Below are positions 3,442 to 26,198 of a stretch of DNA of 26,301 nt, one piece after another. Position 1 is the first letter of the stretch. Each line of letters starts with the position of its first letter. A program made the translations under genes and the position numbers. The notes under the pieces were generated by a model. The model searched no databases, was not told the DNA's origin, and saw only the letters and a program-made list of their open reading frames with translations. Source of the DNA: a virus; IMG/VR virus record IMGVR_UViG_3300027963_000292, positions 1 through 26,301 of that record; one strand, written 5' to 3'.

Positions 3442-5786
3442 GCAAGCTCAACCCCAGCGGCTCTCCCGTCTGCGCCACGGATAATCTTCTTAGGCGCTGC
3501 AATAACAGTCATCACGCCATTGATTTTATCCATTGCCATATTGTGCATATTGCTCATGTTGTCGTGCATCTGAACCATGCGGTTCATGGCTTGCGTCACA
3601 TTGTCACCCAGTTCTGCGGCAATCTTGGTGCTTGCAGCCTCTTGAGCCTCAAGCAATGGCAAGTCTAAGCCTGGGTTCGCCCCAATCCTAGCCACCATAA
3701 TCTTGGTTGCAGACTCTAGCTCAGTTTTCCATTTCTCTAACTGTTCAGCAGCTTGCAACTTGGCTTGTTCCATTGCCTGCATATATTGCTGCTTTTGCGC
3801 CTCTAATTGCGTTTCGGCTTGCAATTTCATTTGTGCCATCTGAACATCTGCTTGTGCTTTGGCTTGGGCAACTTGAATATCGGCTTGCGCCCTAAGTTGT
3901 TCAGATTGCGCCGTGGCCTGCATCTTCATTTGTTCGTTTTGGGCTTGAGCTTGCATCTTCATCTGCTCAAACTGTTGTTCGGCTTGCATCTTAACCACTT
4001 CAGGATTAAGTGGTGGTGGCTGCGTTGCCATTTGCTGTTGTTTCATCTGCAACTGTTGCATCGCTTGGTCAATTGTGCCTTCAATTGGCGCTGCCTTCTT
4101 GTATGCGCCAACGCCAAACTTAACCAATTCAATAAGCATTGGCACTAACTCTGGCGCTTGTTGACCCATTGGCAACGCTTGCGTCAAGAACCCACCCATT
4201 GCTTGCAAAAACTCGACTCGCTCACGTTTGTTTTGATTCTCGTCAATTTGCACCAGGCTGTCCGAGTCCACTTGGATGCGGAACGATCGTAATGGCTTGC
4301 TTTGAATTAACTGCAAGGCTTGTGGAATCAGCGTCTGATCTGCCGGCTGCATACCTTGTGCGGCAGCGTACATAAGGATCGTTGTGGGCTGAAACTTAGT
4401 GCAAATAACTTGGGCTTTTAACTGGAATAGCTCACTCGCAAACAGGGCAACATCTTCTTGCATCGAGCGCAAGCGCAGTCCTGCATACTGACCCTTAATC
4501 TGTTGTGCCGTGGCTGTTTCGCTGGCAGCTGTTTGTCCCCGAACAATGTCACTAATACCTGTAATTTCATAGATTTGGTTTTTAATTTCATCTCTTGCCC
4601 GATAGCATTGCAATAGAGCATTTGACAGGGTATCCAACGGCAGCAAGTCAATAGACCCTTTTAAGCCGCCTTTCTCAGAGAACGCCATCCACTTATCAAC
4701 AGGAATAAGTGTGTTGTTATCGCCCTCAGTCAAAAGACGCTGCAAGGTGGGTTGTGATGCGTCATAGACCCCACGCACACGCAACGCTTTAACTAACCCG
4801 TCGATACGATCAGTCAGAATGTCTAACTCTGTTGCTTGGTCTTGATAAAGCACAAAATCAGGCACAGGCACAAGCGTGTCGCTCGTCATTGTGGCGTATA
4901 ACGGTTTAGCGCATGGAAAGAAGTTCTCAAGCTCTAGCGGATCGTCACGTTCGTCCAATATGTCTGGGCAACTCTTGCTGATCCAATACACCTTGCCGCT
5001 TTCTTTGTCCCAAATTTCGCAAATTTTAGCTCTTGTGAAATCTTTGGATTGGGTCGAATACTGTTTATTCGTTTCAGGCCCTGCATCCAATGGAATCTTT
5101 CTAGCCATTTCCTCGCCAAATCGTTCGGCAAGGCTTTCTTTGGTCATGTAAACCCAGCGCCAAACGCTTGTGACTTCTTCCCATGTTCTTGCAACCGAAT
5201 GACCAAAGTCCTTCCAATGCACATAGTCGGTAGGCGCACATTCGTACTCAATTTCTTCTTGTGGTTCGACTTCCTCACCCAAAGCGCCATCAATGCCAGG
5301 CATTGCTGTCTTAACTTGTTGACCTTCGCTGTCAACTTCGTCCACATCTTCAGTTACTTGCAGCCCATCTTCAGGAATGTCTTGCGCCCGAACGTGCGGC
5401 TCGTACCGAACCCATGCCACGCCTCGACCACCCAAAAACCTATCCTCAACTGCGTGTTTCATTGTCGATCTGAAATCGGTGTAATGCTCAATTTCAAAAT
5501 CCAAGGCACGTTCAATAAGTTGTGCGGCAACACGGGCAACTGGATCGTTATCCCCAAAGCGCCTAGCAACGTCTGCTTTCGGCAATCGAGCGTACACGGC
5601 AGGGATCAACGTCTGTACGTTAGACCACAGAATATTGAATTTAGCGGTTTCGTTTGTGTTCTGATTGCGGTTGTCATCACGGTAACGCTTAACAATCTTA
5701 GTGGTGCGACCTTCCCACTTTTTAAATTCATTATCGTATTGGCTGATCGTATTCAGCCACTTTTGAACACCAGTCAATGCTTCCAT
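3438..5786 (-). CDS. Portal protein
   Basis: A roughly 782-residue portal, the dodecameric ring at the packaging vertex through which DNA enters and leaves. Its N-terminal part (WSNVQTLIPAVYARLPKADV, then a long helix and FLGGRGVAWVRYEP) is typical of podovirus-type portals. The C-terminal 200 or so residues contain a long Gln/Met/Lys/Ala-rich coiled coil (repeats such as EQMKMQAQAQ), consistent with the helical barrel of P22-like portals. A longer frame begins with a TTG at 5801, but the ATG at 5786 comes one base after the upstream stop, so I chose it. It overlaps the next gene by four bases. Confidence 0.9.
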   Translation of the reverse strand: MEALTGVQKWLNTISQYDNEFKKWEGRTTKIVKRYRDDNRNQNTNETAKFNILWSNVQTLIPAVYARLPKADVARRFGDNDPVARVAAQLIERALDFEIEHYTDFRSTMKHAVEDRFLGGRGVAWVRYEPHVRAQDIPEDGLQVTEDVDEVDSEGQQVKTAMPGIDGALGEEVEPQEEIEYECAPTDYVHWKDFGHSVARTWEEVTSVWRWVYMTKESLAERFGEEMARKIPLDAGPETNKQYSTQSKDFTRAKICEIWDKESGKVYWISKSCPDILDERDDPLELENFFPCAKPLYATMTSDTLVPVPDFVLYQDQATELDILTDRIDGLVKALRVRGVYDASQPTLQRLLTEGDNNTLIPVDKWMAFSEKGGLKGSIDLLPLDTLSNALLQCYRARDEIKNQIYEITGISDIVRGQTAASETATAQQIKGQYAGLRLRSMQEDVALFASELFQLKAQVICTKFQPTTILMYAAAQGMQPADQTLIPQALQLIQSKPLRSFRIQVDSDSLVQIDENQNKRERVEFLQAMGGFLTQALPMGQQAPELVPMLIELVKFGVGAYKKAAPIEGTIDQAMQQLQMKQQQMATQPPPLNPEVVKMQAEQQFEQMKMQAQAQNEQMKMQATAQSEQLRAQADIQVAQAKAQADVQMAQMKLQAETQLEAQKQQYMQAMEQAKLQAAEQLEKWKTELESATKIMVARIGANPGLDLPLLEAQEAASTKIAAELGDNVTQAMNRMVQMHDNMSNMHNMAMDKINGVMTVIAAPKKIIRGADGRAAGVELA

Positions 5787-5787
5787 C

Positions 5788-6399
5788 TTAGTATCTCGCA
5801 AAAATTACGTCACGGTTAACCCGCCCGACAATCTCATAATCCCAACTTTGGAGTAATCCGATTGTGTCCTCGTCGGTGTATCCATAACGACTGCCCAAGC
5901 CTTTAAGCTCTAGCGTGATAACTGGATACGTTCTCTTAATTGTTTGTTCAGCGCCCAATATAGCTAAATGCTCGTAGCCTTCAATGTCTAATTGAATAAA
6001 GTCGCAATCATCTACTTCTAAAGAATCAATTGGCATGACCTTAATATTGTTGCCGGCCTTTAACTGGTGCGCCCCAATGTTCTCAGGGTATGGATGCTCG
6101 ACTGACGCTGTGCCGTGTTTGTCACCAAATGCAGCCCAATGATGCTCAATGTTGTCGTGGTTAAAAACATTCAGTAACAAATATTGATAATTGACCGTAT
6201 CAGGCTCGACTGTAATCACACGTTCAAATTGCCCCGCCATCGTAGCGGGATAAACACCGATATTGCCACCGGCCTGAATGACTGTGCGAAATTGGTTCAA
6301 GTGGGTATAGCTCACATTCAAGTCTGGCAGCTCAACCAAGAGTGCGTTAATGCAACACTCGTCTATGTCGGGAACTTGCCAGCCTTCAACCAATTTCAT
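5788..6399 (-). CDS. FkbM family methyltransferase
   Basis: A 203-residue SAM-dependent methyltransferase. The SAM-binding loop reads VIQAGGNIGVYP (about residues 41-52), followed by the acidic strand end VITVEPDTVNY. The FkbM signature DFIQLDIEGYEHLAILGAE sits at about 134-152, and the C-terminus carries TLELKG. FkbM enzymes usually O-methylate sugars or small molecules. The gene lies between portal and glycosyltransferase, overlapping the latter by 14 bases. Modification of a glycan, on the virion or on the host surface, is a reasonable inference; the substrate is not visible in the sequence. Confidence 0.85.
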   Translation of the reverse strand: MKLVEGWQVPDIDECCINALLVELPDLNVSYTHLNQFRTVIQAGGNIGVYPATMAGQFERVITVEPDTVNYQYLLLNVFNHDNIEHHWAAFGDKHGTASVEHPYPENIGAHQLKAGNNIKVMPIDSLEVDDCDFIQLDIEGYEHLAILGAEQTIKRTYPVITLELKGLGSRYGYTDEDTIGLLQSWDYEIVGRVNRDVIFARY

Positions 6400-6976
6400 A
6401 CGGTATCCTTGTTTGTTCCCACGGTCTAGGTTTGCCGTGGAATATCACAACCTTGGCATCCTCTAACCCTTTGGGCAGCACATCAGCCTTAAAGCTCACA
6501 ATCCCATCTGCAATGTCCTGCCAGTACGTCACTTTGTCCCGCATATGGTGTTCGATATAGCTCTGATCGCCACCAGCAGCATACATTTGCAATGCGGCAA
6601 ACTTGTCATACAAATCAACATACTTTGACCAATACATCATGCTGCTCTGCATGGCTTTTGGGTTGTACTGACCACGGTAAACGTCACGCATAATCACAAA
6701 ATCGTGCTGCTTTGCCGCCTCAATCATTGCCGTACAATCACCAGTCAACACGGTATCTAAGTCAAAGTACAGCGCACTTGGTAGCCGAAACAACTCCATC
6801 TTTGCCCACCAACCAACCCAATCATGCAGCAAAGGGATGGTTTCGCACTCTAATTCCATATCTGTCAGGCACACAAACTTGTGCGGTGGCAAATATTTAG
6901 CGCACATTTTTTCAAGCGCATAAACGTGTTCAGGCTTGAAATCACCGCCTGAACGCAATACTGATGCAACGATCAT
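6386..6976 (-). CDS. Putative glycosyltransferase (GT-A, GT8-like)
   Basis: A 196-residue protein with a metal-binding DxD motif in ALYFDLDTVLTGD (about residues 67-79). The region KMELFRLPSALYF just before it and the late VVIFHGKPRPWE (about 175-186) are typical of small GT8-like and related GT-A transferases in phages. AAGGDQSYIEHH fits the conserved Gly-Asp-Gln acceptor-side motif. It would transfer a sugar from a nucleotide-sugar donor; donor and acceptor are unknown. It overlaps the FkbM gene by 14 bases and shares one base (TAATG) with the upstream gene, so the pair is almost certainly co-expressed with the head genes. Confidence 0.8.
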   Translation of the reverse strand: MIVASVLRSGGDFKPEHVYALEKMCAKYLPPHKFVCLTDMELECETIPLLHDWVGWWAKMELFRLPSALYFDLDTVLTGDCTAMIEAAKQHDFVIMRDVYRGQYNPKAMQSSMMYWSKYVDLYDKFAALQMYAAGGDQSYIEHHMRDKVTYWQDIADGIVSFKADVLPKGLEDAKVVIFHGKPRPWEQTRIPYEIG

Positions 6977-7296
6977 TATGTGAAAATACCTACCGCCATA
7001 ACTTCAGAGCCTGCGCCAGTTGTTACTTTCCAAGCGCCATTTGCAGAAATAGCATTGATCTCAATACTATAAACACCAACGCCACCAGCAACAGCGTTTG
7101 GCAGAATGGTATGTGTCAAAACGCCTGCACCACTTCCGTCTACGATCTGAACGGCTGAAGTCAACGCCGTGTTTACTGTAATGATTAAACGATGCAGATA
7201 ATCACCAACTGCGCCAGTTGTACCTAAAACCTGTGCGGTTTGGCTTGCTGAAACGTGTTCATAAAAATAACGATAGGGATTTGCTACGCCACTCAT
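6976..7296 (-). CDS. Small virion-like protein of unknown function
   Basis: A 106-residue protein poor in charged residues and rich in Gly, Ala, Val and Thr, with probable beta strands (YLHRLIITVNTALTSAVQIVDG, then GVYSIEINAISANGAWKVTTG). Similar small beta-rich proteins beside large terminase genes are common in phages and have no proven role. It overlaps TerL by four bases. A capsid-surface or neck protein is plausible from composition and neighbours. Confidence 0.6.
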   Translation of the reverse strand: MSGVANPYRYFYEHVSASQTAQVLGTTGAVGDYLHRLIITVNTALTSAVQIVDGSGAGVLTHTILPNAVAGGVGVYSIEINAISANGAWKVTTGAGSEVMAVGIFT

Positions 7297-9270: not shown

Positions 9271-9422
9271 TTCTTATTGTCCTTGGCAGTCTTGGCTGAT
9301 TCTTTAAAGTCTTTAGCCGTGGGTGCGCCTGGATCACCTGGCTTTCTCATCTTTTCGCCGCTGCCTGCTTTGATGCGTTCTTGTTTGGCAAGAATTGCCG
9401 CATATAGTCCATGTTTGCTCAT
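9267..9422 (-). CDS. Small conserved phage protein, 51 aa
   Basis: A short gene that starts MSKHGLYAAILAKQERIK and continues GSGEKMRKPGDPGAPTAKDF. It overlaps both neighbours by four bases (ATGA at each end), which is strong evidence that it is real. The GSGEKMRKPG..GAPTAKDF motif recurs in short phage proteins and is usually seen beside DUF6321-type genes. Function is unknown. It is very basic and has no hydrophobic segment. Confidence 0.75.
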   Translation of the reverse strand: MSKHGLYAAILAKQERIKAGSGEKMRKPGDPGAPTAKDFKESAKTAKDNKK

Positions 9423-9775
9423 TTGAACGCCTTTAGTTTATAAAGGGTTGAATCAATCAAAGCCGCAATTTCGTCGATTTGGTTTTGTAGATTTGTGTCT
9501 TTAGGCAATTCATCACGAATGTCCTTTACAAATGCTTTGACGCTTGTGATGTATTTAACTGGGTCTGTCGCTAGATGAAAATCTTTTGGATAGCTTTTGA
9601 TTTGCTCGTAAGCCCCTTGATAACTTTCTGCCCAAGTATCAACTAGGTCAATAATGCCTTCGTAGTATTTTTGCAACGCTTTATGTTTGGCATAAGAGTC
9701 TGTTTGCAAGTGCATGAAATGTGCGTTTGTCCCGCTATGGAACAAGGTTGAGACAAATACGGCAGGATAGTCCAT
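9419..9775 (-). CDS. DUF5856-like, Dps/ferritin-like helical protein
   Basis: A 118-residue, all-helical-looking protein. HSGTNAHFMHLQTDSYAKHKALQKYYEGI (about residues 13-41) has several histidines (13, 19, 22, 31), followed by DLVDTWAESYQGAYE. This is close to the first helices of Dps/ferritin-like proteins and to the phage family DUF5856. Iron binding or DNA protection would follow from that fold, but no such activity is shown for the family as far as I know. GAGGTC before the ATG gives a clear start. It stands eight bases after the RusA stop. Confidence 0.55.
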   Translation of the reverse strand: MDYPAVFVSTLFHSGTNAHFMHLQTDSYAKHKALQKYYEGIIDLVDTWAESYQGAYEQIKSYPKDFHLATDPVKYITSVKAFVKDIRDELPKDTNLQNQIDEIAALIDSTLYKLKAFK

Positions 9776-9782
9776 AGTGACC

Positions 9783-10133
9783 TCATAGGGTAGCTATCAC
9801 AATTGTACAACCGCCGCCTGATTTAATCGACCCCCTTGCAATCTCTATTTTGTCAAACTGTCCGTCATCGTCAAACACGCCTGCATCCTGCAAAGCGTCA
9901 AATAAGCCTTTTAGCCTGTTGTCTAGGTCAATGCTGCGCCTATCCCTTGGAAAGATAGTAATGATCGCCATAAGCCTGTTTGAGCCAAAACTAGGCACTT
10001 CGTTGACCGTAACGTACTCTTGCACCGCTTGTTTGTAATCTCGCCCACCCTGACTAAGTATTGTCCTGCCTCTAAAATTGCGCCAGTAAGTGTTTACACT
10101 TGGCGGTATCGGTAGTTGCAGGGTAGCAATCAT
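9783..10133 (-). CDS. rusA: RusA-type Holliday junction resolvase
   Basis: A 116-residue resolvase. It begins with PIPPSVNTYWRNFRGR, the RusA N-terminal signature. It carries the metal-binding acidic set in RRSIDLDNRLKGLFDALQDAGVFDDD, equivalent to the DxD plus downstream Asp of E. coli RusA, and ends with KIEIARG. RusA dimers cut four-way junctions formed in recombination or by branched replication intermediates. A longer frame exists to 10175, but the ATG at 10133 overlaps the upstream stop (ATGA) and leaves a normal-length protein. It works naturally with the ERF, SSB and nuclease genes upstream. Confidence 0.9.
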   Translation of the reverse strand: MIATLQLPIPPSVNTYWRNFRGRTILSQGGRDYKQAVQEYVTVNEVPSFGSNRLMAIITIFPRDRRSIDLDNRLKGLFDALQDAGVFDDDGQFDKIEIARGSIKSGGGCTIVIATL

Positions 10134-10870
10134 ATAAGTGAGTGTTGCAATTGTTCCGGCACAAAGAAATTCCATCGGGCCGGTGCATTGTGCGACTCAA
10201 TTCTAGCTCTCATCACTTGCGCCCTGACTTCTTTGCTTGGTGGCATATAGTTACCCTTCCAAGATTGGTCTATTCCGATATTCCTGCCAATGTTTGTGCT
10301 GTCAGCTGACGCAAATGGTAGCTTTGTAAATACTTCAGGGTTTAACATCCGCAGGCCGTGCAACTTTACTAATGGCTGACCGTCATCATTGCAGATCACC
10401 CGCATAGCCTGGGCGATACGTTGCCACCATTGTTGTGTGCCGATTGTTGCGTAATTGCCGCTACTGCCTAAACAAACCCTTGGATAATCATTTGCTAACC
10501 GTTGTAACCGATCAAATGATTCATGCATATGCCAAACTGGTGCGCCAAACCATTTAGGCAATGACCATTCGGCTAATAATGCATCGTTATCGGCCTCATT
10601 CCCGTCAATTACGTCAGGAATCACCGCAAAGTCACAGGACGGGACGAGTTTAGCTTTTGCTGCCCATTCGTAGTAACCCGACCAATCTAATATCGGTTTG
10701 CCTTTTTTCCATGCGCTAAATGCCCCATTGTCTACGGCAAAACTTTGACAAACCTCAATAGCAATCGGCAATTGTTCAGGATGGGCGTAACTTATAAAGG
10801 CATGGCCTGTTGTAATTGCTAACGCTGCCGCAGTACCAGGTGTAATTGGCAAGCCATGATAATGAATCAT
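10130..10870 (-). CDS. TGT-like / DpdA-like 7-deazaguanine transglycosylase
   Basis: A 246-residue protein that can be lined up by eye with tRNA-guanine transglycosylases. FAVDNGAFSAW (44-54) matches the SDSGGFQ region with catalytic Asp47. CDFAVIPDVIDG (79-90) matches the substrate-binding Asp strand. VCLGSSGNY (132-140) matches the Gly-Gly loop. KLHGLRM (169-175) followed by FASADSTNIGRN (186-197) matches the nucleophile region, with Asp190. The zinc signature CxCxxC of tRNA enzymes is not seen. Phage members of this superfamily (DpdA) swap guanine in DNA for a 7-deazaguanine. The QueD-like gene directly upstream, overlapping by ATGA, supports that reading. Which base it inserts, and whether tRNA could be the target, is open. 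Confidence 0.62.
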   Translation of the reverse strand: MIHYHGLPITPGTAAALAITTGHAFISYAHPEQLPIAIEVCQSFAVDNGAFSAWKKGKPILDWSGYYEWAAKAKLVPSCDFAVIPDVIDGNEADNDALLAEWSLPKWFGAPVWHMHESFDRLQRLANDYPRVCLGSSGNYATIGTQQWWQRIAQAMRVICNDDGQPLVKLHGLRMLNPEVFTKLPFASADSTNIGRNIGIDQSWKGNYMPPSKEVRAQVMRARIESHNAPARWNFFVPEQLQHSLI

Positions 10871-11196
10871 TCAAATTCACCGTTGTAAACCGCACCCAGA
10901 CCGATTGATGGTCGCTCAACTCTGATTTCAAATAATCTTAAATGCTTAAGTAAAATCCAAATTTCCCTTGCTATATTTTCACTTGTTGGTAAATCAAACA
11001 AATTATCTAAATTTTTATGATCAAAAATTGATTTAACAAATAAACATTCTTTTTCAAGTTCAGACTCTCGAATGACATACCCATCTACAGCATTGCCTTG
11101 TACCCAAACTTCAACATGATAAGAATGACCGTGTATTTCTGGGTAATCCGGTAAAGAGTGAGCCGCTTCAAACGTAAATCGTTTAAAAAGTTTCAT
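10867..11196 (-). CDS. QueD-like 6-carboxytetrahydropterin synthase homolog lacking the catalytic Cys
   Basis: A 109-residue T-fold protein. LFKRFTFEAAHSLP near the start matches E. coli QueD closely. Zinc ligands His13, His22 and His24 (HGHSY) are kept, as are Asp59-His60 (SIFDHKNLD) and Glu94 (RVERP), and PTSENIAREIW is typical. However, the loop between HSLPDYPE and HGHS is about six residues shorter than in QueD and has no cysteine, so the residue equivalent to Cys27 is missing. QueD makes 6-carboxytetrahydropterin from dihydroneopterin triphosphate, for 7-deazaguanine synthesis. The gene is visibly more A/T-rich than its neighbours, which hints at a separate origin. It sits between DpdA-like and Ref-like genes with ATGA overlaps. 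Confidence 0.8.
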   Translation of the reverse strand: MKLFKRFTFEAAHSLPDYPEIHGHSYHVEVWVQGNAVDGYVIRESELEKECLFVKSIFDHKNLDNLFDLPTSENIAREIWILLKHLRLFEIRVERPSIGLGAVYNGEFE

Positions 11197-11459
11197 AATA
11201 ACGCTTCTGTTTGGGCTAATAAATCTTCTTCTGTAATCCCATATTTTTGAGCAAACGCCTTTTTGCCCAGTCCGTGTACCCCATCATTGCCGGTATGATG
11301 ATTTGGGCATAACGGTATAACCGGCGCATTTTCACGTTTCATTCCTAATCGTCTAATGTGATGAATATGGGCTGGTGTTTCCCCATATCCCAAGTGTCGG
11401 CACAACGAGCATCCAAGTTCTGCAAGTTTTTCGTAATGCTTACGTTGTGCTTTTGTCAC
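11193..11459 (-). CDS. Ref-like HNH nuclease domain protein
   Basis: An 88-residue protein with CSLCRHLGYGETPAHIHHIRR (Cys17, Cys20, His32-His34 region), then VIPLCPNHHTGNDGVHGLGKKAFAQKYGITEEDLL. This is the C-terminal zinc/HNH-like domain of phage P1 Ref (recombination enhancement function, a RecA-dependent nuclease). P1 Ref has an extra basic N-terminal tail that is not present here. The start is GTG and overlaps the upstream stop (GTGA), which implies coupled translation. In this cluster it probably nicks or processes DNA during recombination. Confidence 0.75.
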   Translation of the reverse strand: MTKAQRKHYEKLAELGCSLCRHLGYGETPAHIHHIRRLGMKRENAPVIPLCPNHHTGNDGVHGLGKKAFAQKYGITEEDLLAQTEALL

Positions 11460-25213: not shown

Positions 25214-25513
25214 TTACCCCGTGTAATTGTTTGCAGTCTGCATTGGCGCTTGAGCGTTAGCCGAATCAAACATACCGCCAGTCTGCGCTTGACCTAATTT
25301 AAGTCGAGCCATGTAATCTTGCATATCTTGCATTTGATTCTGTTTTTGCATTTGCCCGTACATACTCATGGCGTTCTGTGCGCCAGCCATAGGATTCTGA
25401 GCTTGCGGCATTTGCCCCATGTCTTGACCTTGCAATGGAGTAGTTTGCTGTTGCTGTTGCAGCATCTGAGCCATTTTTTGCTGTGGAGTCATGTTGACGT
25501 ATTGATTAAGCAT
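25214..25513 (-). CDS. Gln/Met-rich small virion-like protein
   Basis: A 99-residue protein with extreme Gln and Met content (MAQMLQQQQQTTPLQGQDMG, then NAMSMYGQMQKQNQMQDM). It lies upstream of the two ejection proteins and overlaps the PP-loop gene by eight bases. Composition and place fit a small internal virion protein. No family recognised. Confidence 0.5.
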   Translation of the reverse strand: MLNQYVNMTPQQKMAQMLQQQQQTTPLQGQDMGQMPQAQNPMAGAQNAMSMYGQMQKQNQMQDMQDYMARLKLGQAQTGGMFDSANAQAPMQTANNYTG

Positions 25514-26198
25514 CGCAATTCCTTAGTAACTCTAAAGTAGGCAACAAGGCAGACTTTAGTGCCGCCATGTTTATTTTATATTTTTCATGCAAATTTGGGT
25601 GTTTTTCTTTCATCCATGCCACTCGATCCGCTGAGTTCGCCAAATACGCTGTGCAATCGTAACAATCAAGGCTTGAATGGTCGATTGCATAATGTTCTGG
25701 TAACTGACATTGTGTCCGTAAAAACGCCAAAACTTGCTCTTTAGTCCATGTTTCTATCGGTTGAATGTAAGTTACACCATCAACTACCGACCCGTGCCGA
25801 GCCGTGGATTTGTGGCTTTCATCAAGCCGTTGACCACGAATCAAATGCGTAATGCCACGTTTTGCAATTGCCTCTGTCAGAGGTTGCCCTACGTTTGCCC
25901 AACAGCAATTTAAATAACTCTGTACTCGTACTGGTTTATCGCCTGAAAATTGCATACCTTCAAGGCTATGGTCAACCGGCACAACGTCGCTTGGATAACC
26001 ATAAAATTTAATTTGCTGCTCTTGATCTGACTTTACTTCAATAAACTCAACTGCATCTGCTTTAACCTGTTCAATGATTTTCATCGTTTCAGGATAAACC
26101 TTGCCTGTATTTGCCCAAAAAACAATCGGATTCTTTTCACGGTACAAATACCAACACGCTAAAGAATCCTTTCCACCTGAGAACGCTAACCCAAGCAT
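25506..26198 (-). CDS. PP-loop enzyme of the PAPS/APS reductase-DndC superfamily
   Basis: A 230-residue protein with the ATP PP-loop LAFSGGKDSLACW (4-16), PIVFWANTGKVYPET, and IRGQRLDESHKST (120-132). Cys98-Cys99 and Cys179-x-x-Cys182 form the CC...CxxC pattern that binds a 4Fe-4S cluster in APS reductases and DndC. The catalytic ECGxH tail of CysH enzymes is missing, so true sulfate reduction is unlikely. Transfer of sulfur, or modification of nucleic acid or protein, is possible. It sits inside the virion/ejection operon, overlapping both sides (TAATG upstream). The substrate is not visible. Confidence 0.75.
   Translation of the reverse strand: MLGLAFSGGKDSLACWYLYREKNPIVFWANTGKVYPETMKIIEQVKADAVEFIEVKSDQEQQIKFYGYPSDVVPVDHSLEGMQFSGDKPVRVQSYLNCCWANVGQPLTEAIAKRGITHLIRGQRLDESHKSTARHGSVVDGVTYIQPIETWTKEQVLAFLRTQCQLPEHYAIDHSSLDCYDCTAYLANSADRVAWMKEKHPNLHEKYKINMAALKSALLPTLELLRNCDA

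What the first reader, a model, noticed from the sequence alone, without database searches (positions are those of the whole stretch)
10130..11196. DpdA-like and QueD-like pair: candidate 7-deazaguanine DNA modification system
Two genes overlapping by ATGA encode a TGT-superfamily protein (Asp47 in FAVDNGAF, Asp190 in FASADSTN, no CxCxxC zinc motif) and a QueD homolog. Known phage DpdA enzymes insert 7-deazaguanines into DNA and protect it from restriction. Here FolE, QueE and QueC are absent from the window, so the precursor would come from the host or from genes outside. The compact enzyme (246 aa) embedded in a recombination cluster may be a distinct subgroup.
Basis: partly seen in the sequence, partly recalled or inferred. 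Interest (0 to 1): 0.75.

Follow-up and report, generated by a model that had tools for sequence, protein, structure and literature searches.

The report
Phage DNA-base-swapping gene with companion
A phage carries a compact enzyme of the family that swaps guanine in DNA for a 7-deazaguanine, coupled to one gene related to the enzyme that starts making that unusual base; hundreds of related phages carry the same enzyme, mostly with one of three alternative companion genes, which suggests how phages with a 'lone' DpdA obtain their base.

Summary
ORF 10130-10870(-) is a compact DpdA: it belongs to phrog_887, is a clear homologue of Salmonella phage 7-11 DpdA (whose DNA contains dADG) and a distant one of CAjan DpdA. 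ORF 10867-11196(-) is a PF01242 (PTPS/QueD) T-fold protein. FolE, QueE and QueC are absent from this record and from 21 related ones. The enzyme falls in the known 'singleton DpdA' group; the pairing appears undescribed in the papers I could read. In about 190 relatives, the compact DpdA mostly sits next to one of three companions: a QueD-like protein (two independent lineages, on either side), a Vut_1/YhhQ-type 7-deazaguanine transporter, or an unknown ~80-residue protein (phrog_37496). Reverse searches found DpdA beside 71/73 QueD-like, 80/80 transporter and 87/87 small-protein loci. The window QueD-like protein lacks the catalytic cysteine. I first read this as loss of QueD activity, but cysteine-less QueDs sit in chromosomal queE/queC operons, so it is not decisive. 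Best model: host QueE/QueC plus phage QueD supply the precursor and DpdA inserts it into phage DNA. Insertion, the base and QueD activity are inferred, not shown.

The parts
10130..10870 (-). compact DpdA (246 aa), TGT-superfamily transglycosylase; Asp47 codon 10730-10732, Asp190 codon 10301-10303
   Evidence: phrog_887 E 2e-73; hhalign to phage 7-11 DpdA Prob 99.8 E 2e-30 and CAjan DpdA Prob 95.6 E 1e-8; D47/D190 invariant in 46 relatives; dN/dS 0.015-0.07
10867..11196 (-). QueD-like T-fold protein (109 aa, PF01242); zinc ligands His13/22/24 and Asp59-His60 kept; Tyr18 in the place of the catalytic Cys, loop 6 residues shorter than E. coli QueD
   Evidence: PF01242 E 7e-18; AF2 pLDDT 88.5 and Foldseek to PH0634/E. 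coli QueD E 3e-10 to 5e-10; alignments; NCBIfam QueD equivalog 58.4 bits vs cut-off 89.25
10867..10870 (-). ATGA overlap of QueD-like stop and DpdA start
   Evidence: sequence; 4-bp overlaps recur in both gene orders
11193..11459 (-). neighbour upstream: RecA-dependent nuclease/HNH-like (88 aa), also ATGA-overlapping
   Evidence: PF16786 E 8e-10
9783..10175 (-). neighbour downstream: RusA resolvase; likely start at 10133, giving an ATGA overlap with DpdA
   Evidence: PF05866 E 8e-13; sequence

Best explanation
The pair is a minimal 7-deazaguanine DNA-modification module. The compact DpdA (TGT superfamily) exchanges guanines in phage DNA for a 7-deazaguanine base, most likely preQ0 or ADG, through Asp47 and Asp190. 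The QueD-like protein is its precursor-supply companion: it takes dihydroneopterin triphosphate, the branch point with folate, into the preQ0 pathway, which host QueE and QueC complete. Other phages with the same DpdA solve the supply problem with a Vut_1/YhhQ-type importer or with an ~80-aa protein of unknown function. Shown: homology of both proteins, purifying selection, repeated and near-exclusive adjacency in two gene orders, recruitment of two QueD lineages, and the presence of QueD and QueC in genomes that carry this DpdA. Inferred: insertion into DNA, the identity of the base, CPH4 synthesis by this cysteine-less QueD, and protection from restriction.
For: DpdA homology to enzymes of phages with measured 7-deazaguanine DNA: 7-11, CAjan, MED16 40.6% identity; LC-MS data in PMC6884629 and PMC8306585. 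QueD-like query: 71 of 73 viral loci have this DpdA adjacent. Companions are nearly exclusive: 92 Q, 29 S, 17 V, 5 S+V loci. Reverse scans: transporter 80/80 and small protein 87/87 loci carry DpdA. Partner changes are scattered over the DpdA tree (at least 29 by type on the quick tree). The Ser-type phage QueDs nest with alpha/beta-proteobacterial QueDs while the window type is a separate clade, so QueD was recruited at least twice. Cysteine-less chromosomal QueDs lie beside queE/queC. All 17 genomes with this DpdA that could be searched encode a PTPS protein and all 15 tested encode QueC. dN/dS well below 1.
Against: The window QueD-like protein fails the CxxxHGH signature and the NCBIfam QueD cut-off, and its short-loop clade has no bacterial QueE-linked member in my sample. 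Hosts already have QueD, so a supply benefit is not obvious. Levels in the tested relatives are tiny (dADG 0.02-0.13% of G), and those phages lack a companion next to DpdA. No related phage with a QueD companion is known to me to have had its DNA measured. hhalign of the DpdA alignment against E. coli TGT alone found nothing.
Confidence: 0.56

Rival explanations
1. The QueD-like protein no longer makes CPH4. It is a T-fold partner that binds or chemically tailors the free or inserted 7-deazaguanine (for example preQ0 to ADG or another derivative), and phrog_37496 is a second, analogous partner.
For: Catalytic Cys replaced in all viral copies linked to this compact DpdA (Tyr/Phe or Ser); zinc site and Asp-His kept; near-exclusive alternation with phrog_37496, which has a weak co-linear resemblance to QueF (E 0.0055, Prob 6.6%).
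Against: Cysteine-less QueDs are found in chromosomal queE/queC operons, so loss of Cys need not mean new chemistry; alternation with a transporter fits supply better; MED16 and 7-11 have dADG although no such companion was found beside MED16 DpdA or is annotated beside that of 7-11.
Confidence: 0.2
2. The DpdA homologue acts on tRNA, not DNA, and the pair raises queuosine in host tRNA during infection.
For: TGT superfamily; databases label the family 'queuine tRNA-ribosyltransferase'; hosts have Q-pathway genes.
Against: 9g DpdA does not complement delta-tgt and CAjan delta-dpdA loses dPreQ0 in DNA (PMC6884629); family members 7-11 and MED16 have dADG in DNA; no CxCxxC zinc motif; no profile match to E. 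coli TGT alone.
Confidence: 0.1
3. The PTPS-fold protein serves folate (PTPS-III type, bypassing FolB) and its adjacency to DpdA is a consequence of gene packing.
For: Best PDB sequence and fold match is PH0634 (2dj6), which carries the PTPS-III motif ExxHGH.
Against: The window has Pro at the Glu position and the position varies in relatives; adjacency to DpdA in 71/73 loci in both orders, and a Vut_1 transporter in its place in other loci.
Confidence: 0.06
4. Hitch-hiking: both genes are passengers in a densely packed recombination cluster with no joint function.
For: Neighbouring genes in this cluster also overlap by ATGA, so coupling is not specific to the pair.
Against: Pairing persists in different contexts, in both orders and with two QueD lineages; strong purifying selection.
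Confidence: 0.04

Closest known systems
Singleton DpdA of gamma-proteobacterial phages (Hutinet 2019 group 3, e.g. Salmonella phage 7-11; MED16 'DpdA/TGT_1' cluster)
   Same: Same homologous enzyme family, short length, two catalytic Asp, no full preQ0 pathway in the phage
   Different: MED16 has none of the three companions within the 2.5 kb searched on either side and none is annotated beside 7-11 DpdA; the window has a coupled QueD-like gene. Hutinet lists no DpdA+QueD-only group and reports no correlation of YhhQ with any group.
CAjan / 9g / Rosebush DpdA1 with full FolE-QueD-QueE-QueC pathway
   Same: CAjan DpdA is a distant homologue; QueD present
   Different: Full pathway and Cys-type QueD where the motif could be read (Ares, classed with Rosebush; Sonali, Dp-1, BSTP8); window lacks FolE, QueE, QueC and the QueD cysteine
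Bacterial cysteine-less (Ser-type) QueD in queE/queC operons (e.g. Acidovorax, Variovorax, Cupriavidus)
   Same: PF01242 and no Cys in CxxxHGH; clade in which most phage QueD companions nest
   Different: Window protein is in a separate clade with a shorter loop and Tyr/Phe instead of Ser
PTPS-III (PH0634, Plasmodium PTPS)
   Same: T-fold; PH0634 is the top PDB hit
   Different: ExxHGH Glu not present

Membership tests
DpdA (7-deazaguanine DNA transglycosylase) | Sequence homology to experimentally studied phage DpdA | tested here: met
   7-11 E 2e-30; CAjan E 1e-8; MED16 40.6% identity
DpdA (7-deazaguanine DNA transglycosylase) | Two catalytic Asp of the TGT superfamily | tested here: met
   D47 and D190 invariant in 46 relatives and aligned with CAjan LDSGAF / SCDSSS
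DpdA (7-deazaguanine DNA transglycosylase) | TGT-type (beta/alpha)8 barrel | tested here: inconclusive
   AF2 pLDDT 68, residues 187-238 under 50; Foldseek gives weak TIM-barrel hits only, none to TGT among the 50 listed
DpdA (7-deazaguanine DNA transglycosylase) | Inserts a 7-deazaguanine into DNA | not testable with these tools
   needs LC-MS of DNA
bacterial TGT (tRNA) | CxCxxC...H zinc site and sequence match to TGT | tested here: not met
   No CxCxxC in the sequence; hhalign to E. coli TGT Prob 0.5
QueD (PTPS-I) | CxxxHGH signature with catalytic Cys | tested here: not met
   YPEIHGH: Tyr18 at the Cys position; signature as stated in PMC5041015
QueD (PTPS-I) | Three zinc His and Asp-His dyad | tested here: met
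   H13, H22, H24, D59, H60 invariant in 28 sequences
QueD (PTPS-I) | NCBIfam QueD equivalog cut-off | tested here: not met
   58.4 vs 89.25 bits
QueD (PTPS-I) | Operon link to QueE/QueC | tested here: not met
   absent from the window record and 21 related records; but met for cysteine-less bacterial QueDs
QueD (PTPS-I) | CPH4 synthase activity | not testable with these tools
   needs enzyme assay or delta-queD complementation
PTPS-III (folate) | ExxHGH signature | tested here: not met
   Pro19 at the Glu position
PTPS-II (biopterin) | CxxxxxHGH signature | tested here: not met
   no Cys in the loop

The most novel reading that the evidence does not exclude
The companions are not suppliers but obligate partners of the compact DpdA. 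Two unrelated small protein families (cysteine-less QueD-like and phrog_37496) do the same job beside DpdA, such as presenting or converting the base so that a new 7-deazaguanine derivative appears in phage DNA.
Probability: 0.18. Interest if true: 0.82.

Novelty: new variant of a known kind. Interest (0 to 1): 0.6.

Why it matters
The modification status of phages that carry DpdA but no preQ0 genes was called difficult to predict (PMC6884629). The companion pattern gives a concrete, testable answer for a large share of them: a branch-point enzyme, an importer, or one unknown small protein that had DpdA close by in every reverse-search locus. It also shows that the CxxxHGH signature used to call QueD misses cysteine-less QueDs in chromosomal queE/queC operons.

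Tried and rejected
(1) I first read the missing cysteine as proof of a non-QueD function; rejected after finding cysteine-less QueDs in chromosomal queE/queC operons. (2) PTPS-III (folate) reading from the ExHGH-like string; rejected because Glu is at the wrong position and is Gln in relatives. (3) Fold proof of the TGT barrel; the model was too weak. (4) The 80-aa companion as a mini QueF: co-linear CP...FHE pattern but hhalign only E 0.0055-0.013, Prob 3-7%, no credible Pfam or PDB match; kept as a lead. (5) ATGA overlap as evidence of a special pair; rejected because neighbours share it. (6) The PAPS-reductase-like protein at 25506-26198 as a QueC substitute; it matches PF01507 and the record gives no QueC hit. 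(7) I recalled that a CDG decarboxylase 'DpdL' might be QueD-like; the paper is not held, so it is not used. (8) A profile scan for the 80-aa family failed and was replaced by two single-protein scans.

Full report
The window is a 26.3-kb IMG/VR virus record with SSB, ERF, RusA, PD-(D/E)XK and RecA-dependent nuclease genes, a large terminase and an endolysin. The two ORFs of the finding are exactly where described. The 246-aa protein has no Pfam family but is phrog_887 (E 2e-73); the 109-aa protein is PF01242 (E 7e-18).

DpdA. Searches found 148 phage records at E<=1e-3 and 484 viral-contig stretches. Against single sequences, the 46-member profile matches the DpdA of Salmonella phage 7-11 over 209 columns (E 2e-30) and of CAjan over 140 columns (E 1e-8), with Asp47 and Asp190 falling on the CAjan LDSGAF and SCDSSS motifs. 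MED16 DpdA is 40.6% identical. In the literature CAjan loses dPreQ0 when dpdA is deleted, 7-11 has 50 dADG per million nucleotides (PMC6884629) and MED16 about 0.13% of G as dADG (PMC8306585). The AlphaFold model reached only pLDDT 68 and its best Foldseek hits are weak TIM-barrel matches, so fold confirmation is lacking. The enzyme therefore belongs, by sequence, with the known singleton DpdA group rather than a new one.

QueD-like protein. The model is good (pLDDT 88.5) and matches PH0634 and E. coli QueD (E 3e-10 to 5e-10, TM about 0.82). The three zinc His and the Asp-His pair are invariant in 28 relatives, but the catalytic Cys of CxxxHGH is missing (Tyr18) and the loop is six residues shorter than in E. 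coli QueD. It scores below the NCBIfam QueD cut-off. I first took this as loss of QueD activity. The test went against that reading. In Acidovorax delafieldii the only PF01242 protein found, and in Variovorax both, have Ser instead of Cys, and such proteins lie beside queE and/or queC in a number of proteobacterial genomes. Loss of Cys is therefore compatible with QueD function, although the window clade itself (Tyr/Phe, short loop) has no queE-linked bacterial member in my sample.

Companions. FolE and radical-SAM (QueE) genes were absent from all 22 records searched, and QueC from all 27 apart from one sub-threshold match; many of these records are fragments. Of the DpdA genes first collected, 92 had the QueD-like gene, 29 an ~80-aa protein (phrog_37496), 17 a Vut_1 (PF02592) transporter, 5 the small protein plus transporter, and 21 none of these. 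The QueD-like gene is upstream in the window type and downstream in the other large group, in both cases usually overlapping. Reverse searches are the stronger test. A scan with the QueD-like alignment gave 73 loci, of which 71 have this DpdA adjacent (L138 is one, with the order S-Q-DpdA). A scan with the transporter alignment gave 80 loci, all with DpdA (62 adjacent, 18 at 150-600 bp; 18 loci also hold the small protein). Two scans with small-protein queries gave 87 loci, all with DpdA (86 adjacent). The queries were built from DpdA-linked members and only the best 80 hits are kept, so these fractions apply to these subfamilies. The link extends to diverged DpdAs of cultured phages: Epa33, Mae-JY30 and RHph_X2_30 (small protein); AB3P2, PEAT2, Sadiya and RHph_N3_2 (transporter). 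PMC6884629 saw no correlation of YhhQ with any phage group.

Evolution. On a quick DpdA tree the companion type needs at least 29 changes and the groups are clustered but repeatedly interrupted (several branches are long or open, so the number is approximate, and one row, L001, the window itself, is mislabelled as downstream because it is on the minus strand). On the PF01242 tree most phage companions nest in the Ser-type proteobacterial QueD clade, while the window type forms its own clade, implying at least two recruitments. QueD is also exchanged within the window group: in L005-L013 several members have 58% identity in QueD while DpdA is 97-99%. dN/dS is 0.015-0.07 for DpdA and 0.06-0.28 for QueD against the window copy.

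Hosts. Named genomes with this DpdA are mostly beta- and gamma-proteobacteria (Acidovorax, Variovorax, Achromobacter, Cupriavidus, Pseudomonas, Yersinia). All 17 that could be searched encode a PF01242 protein and all 15 tested encode QueC. The nearest, a beta-proteobacterial MAG with 95% identical DpdA, has its own Cys-type QueD beside queE as well as the phage-type QueD; MAG contigs can be mis-binned.

Mechanism. The economical reading is supply: QueD commits the FolE product, shared with folate, to the preQ0 route, and the transporter would import a finished precursor. Both feed DpdA while the host provides the rest. The alternative, that the small companions handle the base chemically or structurally, remains open because the 80-aa protein is uncharacterised. 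What is shown is homology, linkage and selection; what is inferred is chemistry and benefit.

Noticed in passing
L035:3385-3639 and relatives (phrog_37496, alignment A3): An ~80-aa protein family of unknown function stands beside compact DpdA in 86 of 87 reverse-search loci (the other 150-600 bp away). Conserved F..CP....I.Y...E and FHE motifs are co-linear with QueF but significance is weak.
   Followed up: partly
L213, L214, L219, L220, L226-L237: Cysteine-less, Ser-type QueD genes beside queE and/or queC in proteobacterial chromosomes; the published CxxxHGH signature would miss them.
   Followed up: yes
L221 (G032 C5:610115-611134), Achromobacter aestuarii: One ORF with three PTPS domains in tandem (two Cys-type HGH motifs and one without Cys) between queE and queC; several other genomes show 2-3 PTPS hits in one 360-440 aa ORF.
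   Followed up: no
L028:2559-3302 and 4317-5057: Two DpdA genes in one contig, each followed by a Vut_1 gene.
   Followed up: no
L143:6394-6702 and 6733-7149 (Acidovorax delafieldii): The DpdA homologue is split into two ORFs, suggesting a decaying prophage copy or a sequence error.
   Followed up: no
L005-L013 vs window 10867-11196: In several of these loci QueD-like is only 58% identical while flanking DpdA is 97-99% and HNH about 90%, pointing to replacement of the QueD allele by recombination.
   Followed up: partly
window 25506-26198: PAPS-reductase-like (PF01507) ATP pyrophosphatase gene; another PAPS-like gene lies directly downstream of DpdA in L011 and two other loci.
   Followed up: no
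window 9419-9775: DUF5856 / phrog_858 ('starvation-inducible transcriptional regulator') protein just downstream of RusA.
   Followed up: no
window 5788-6976: FkbM-type methyltransferase gene next to an unassigned gene (6386-6976), lying between the terminase and a large portal-like gene.
   Followed up: no
L156 (Terriglobia MAG): Compact DpdA followed by a QueD with the canonical Cys motif, the only Cys-type companion of a compact DpdA seen.
   Followed up: partly
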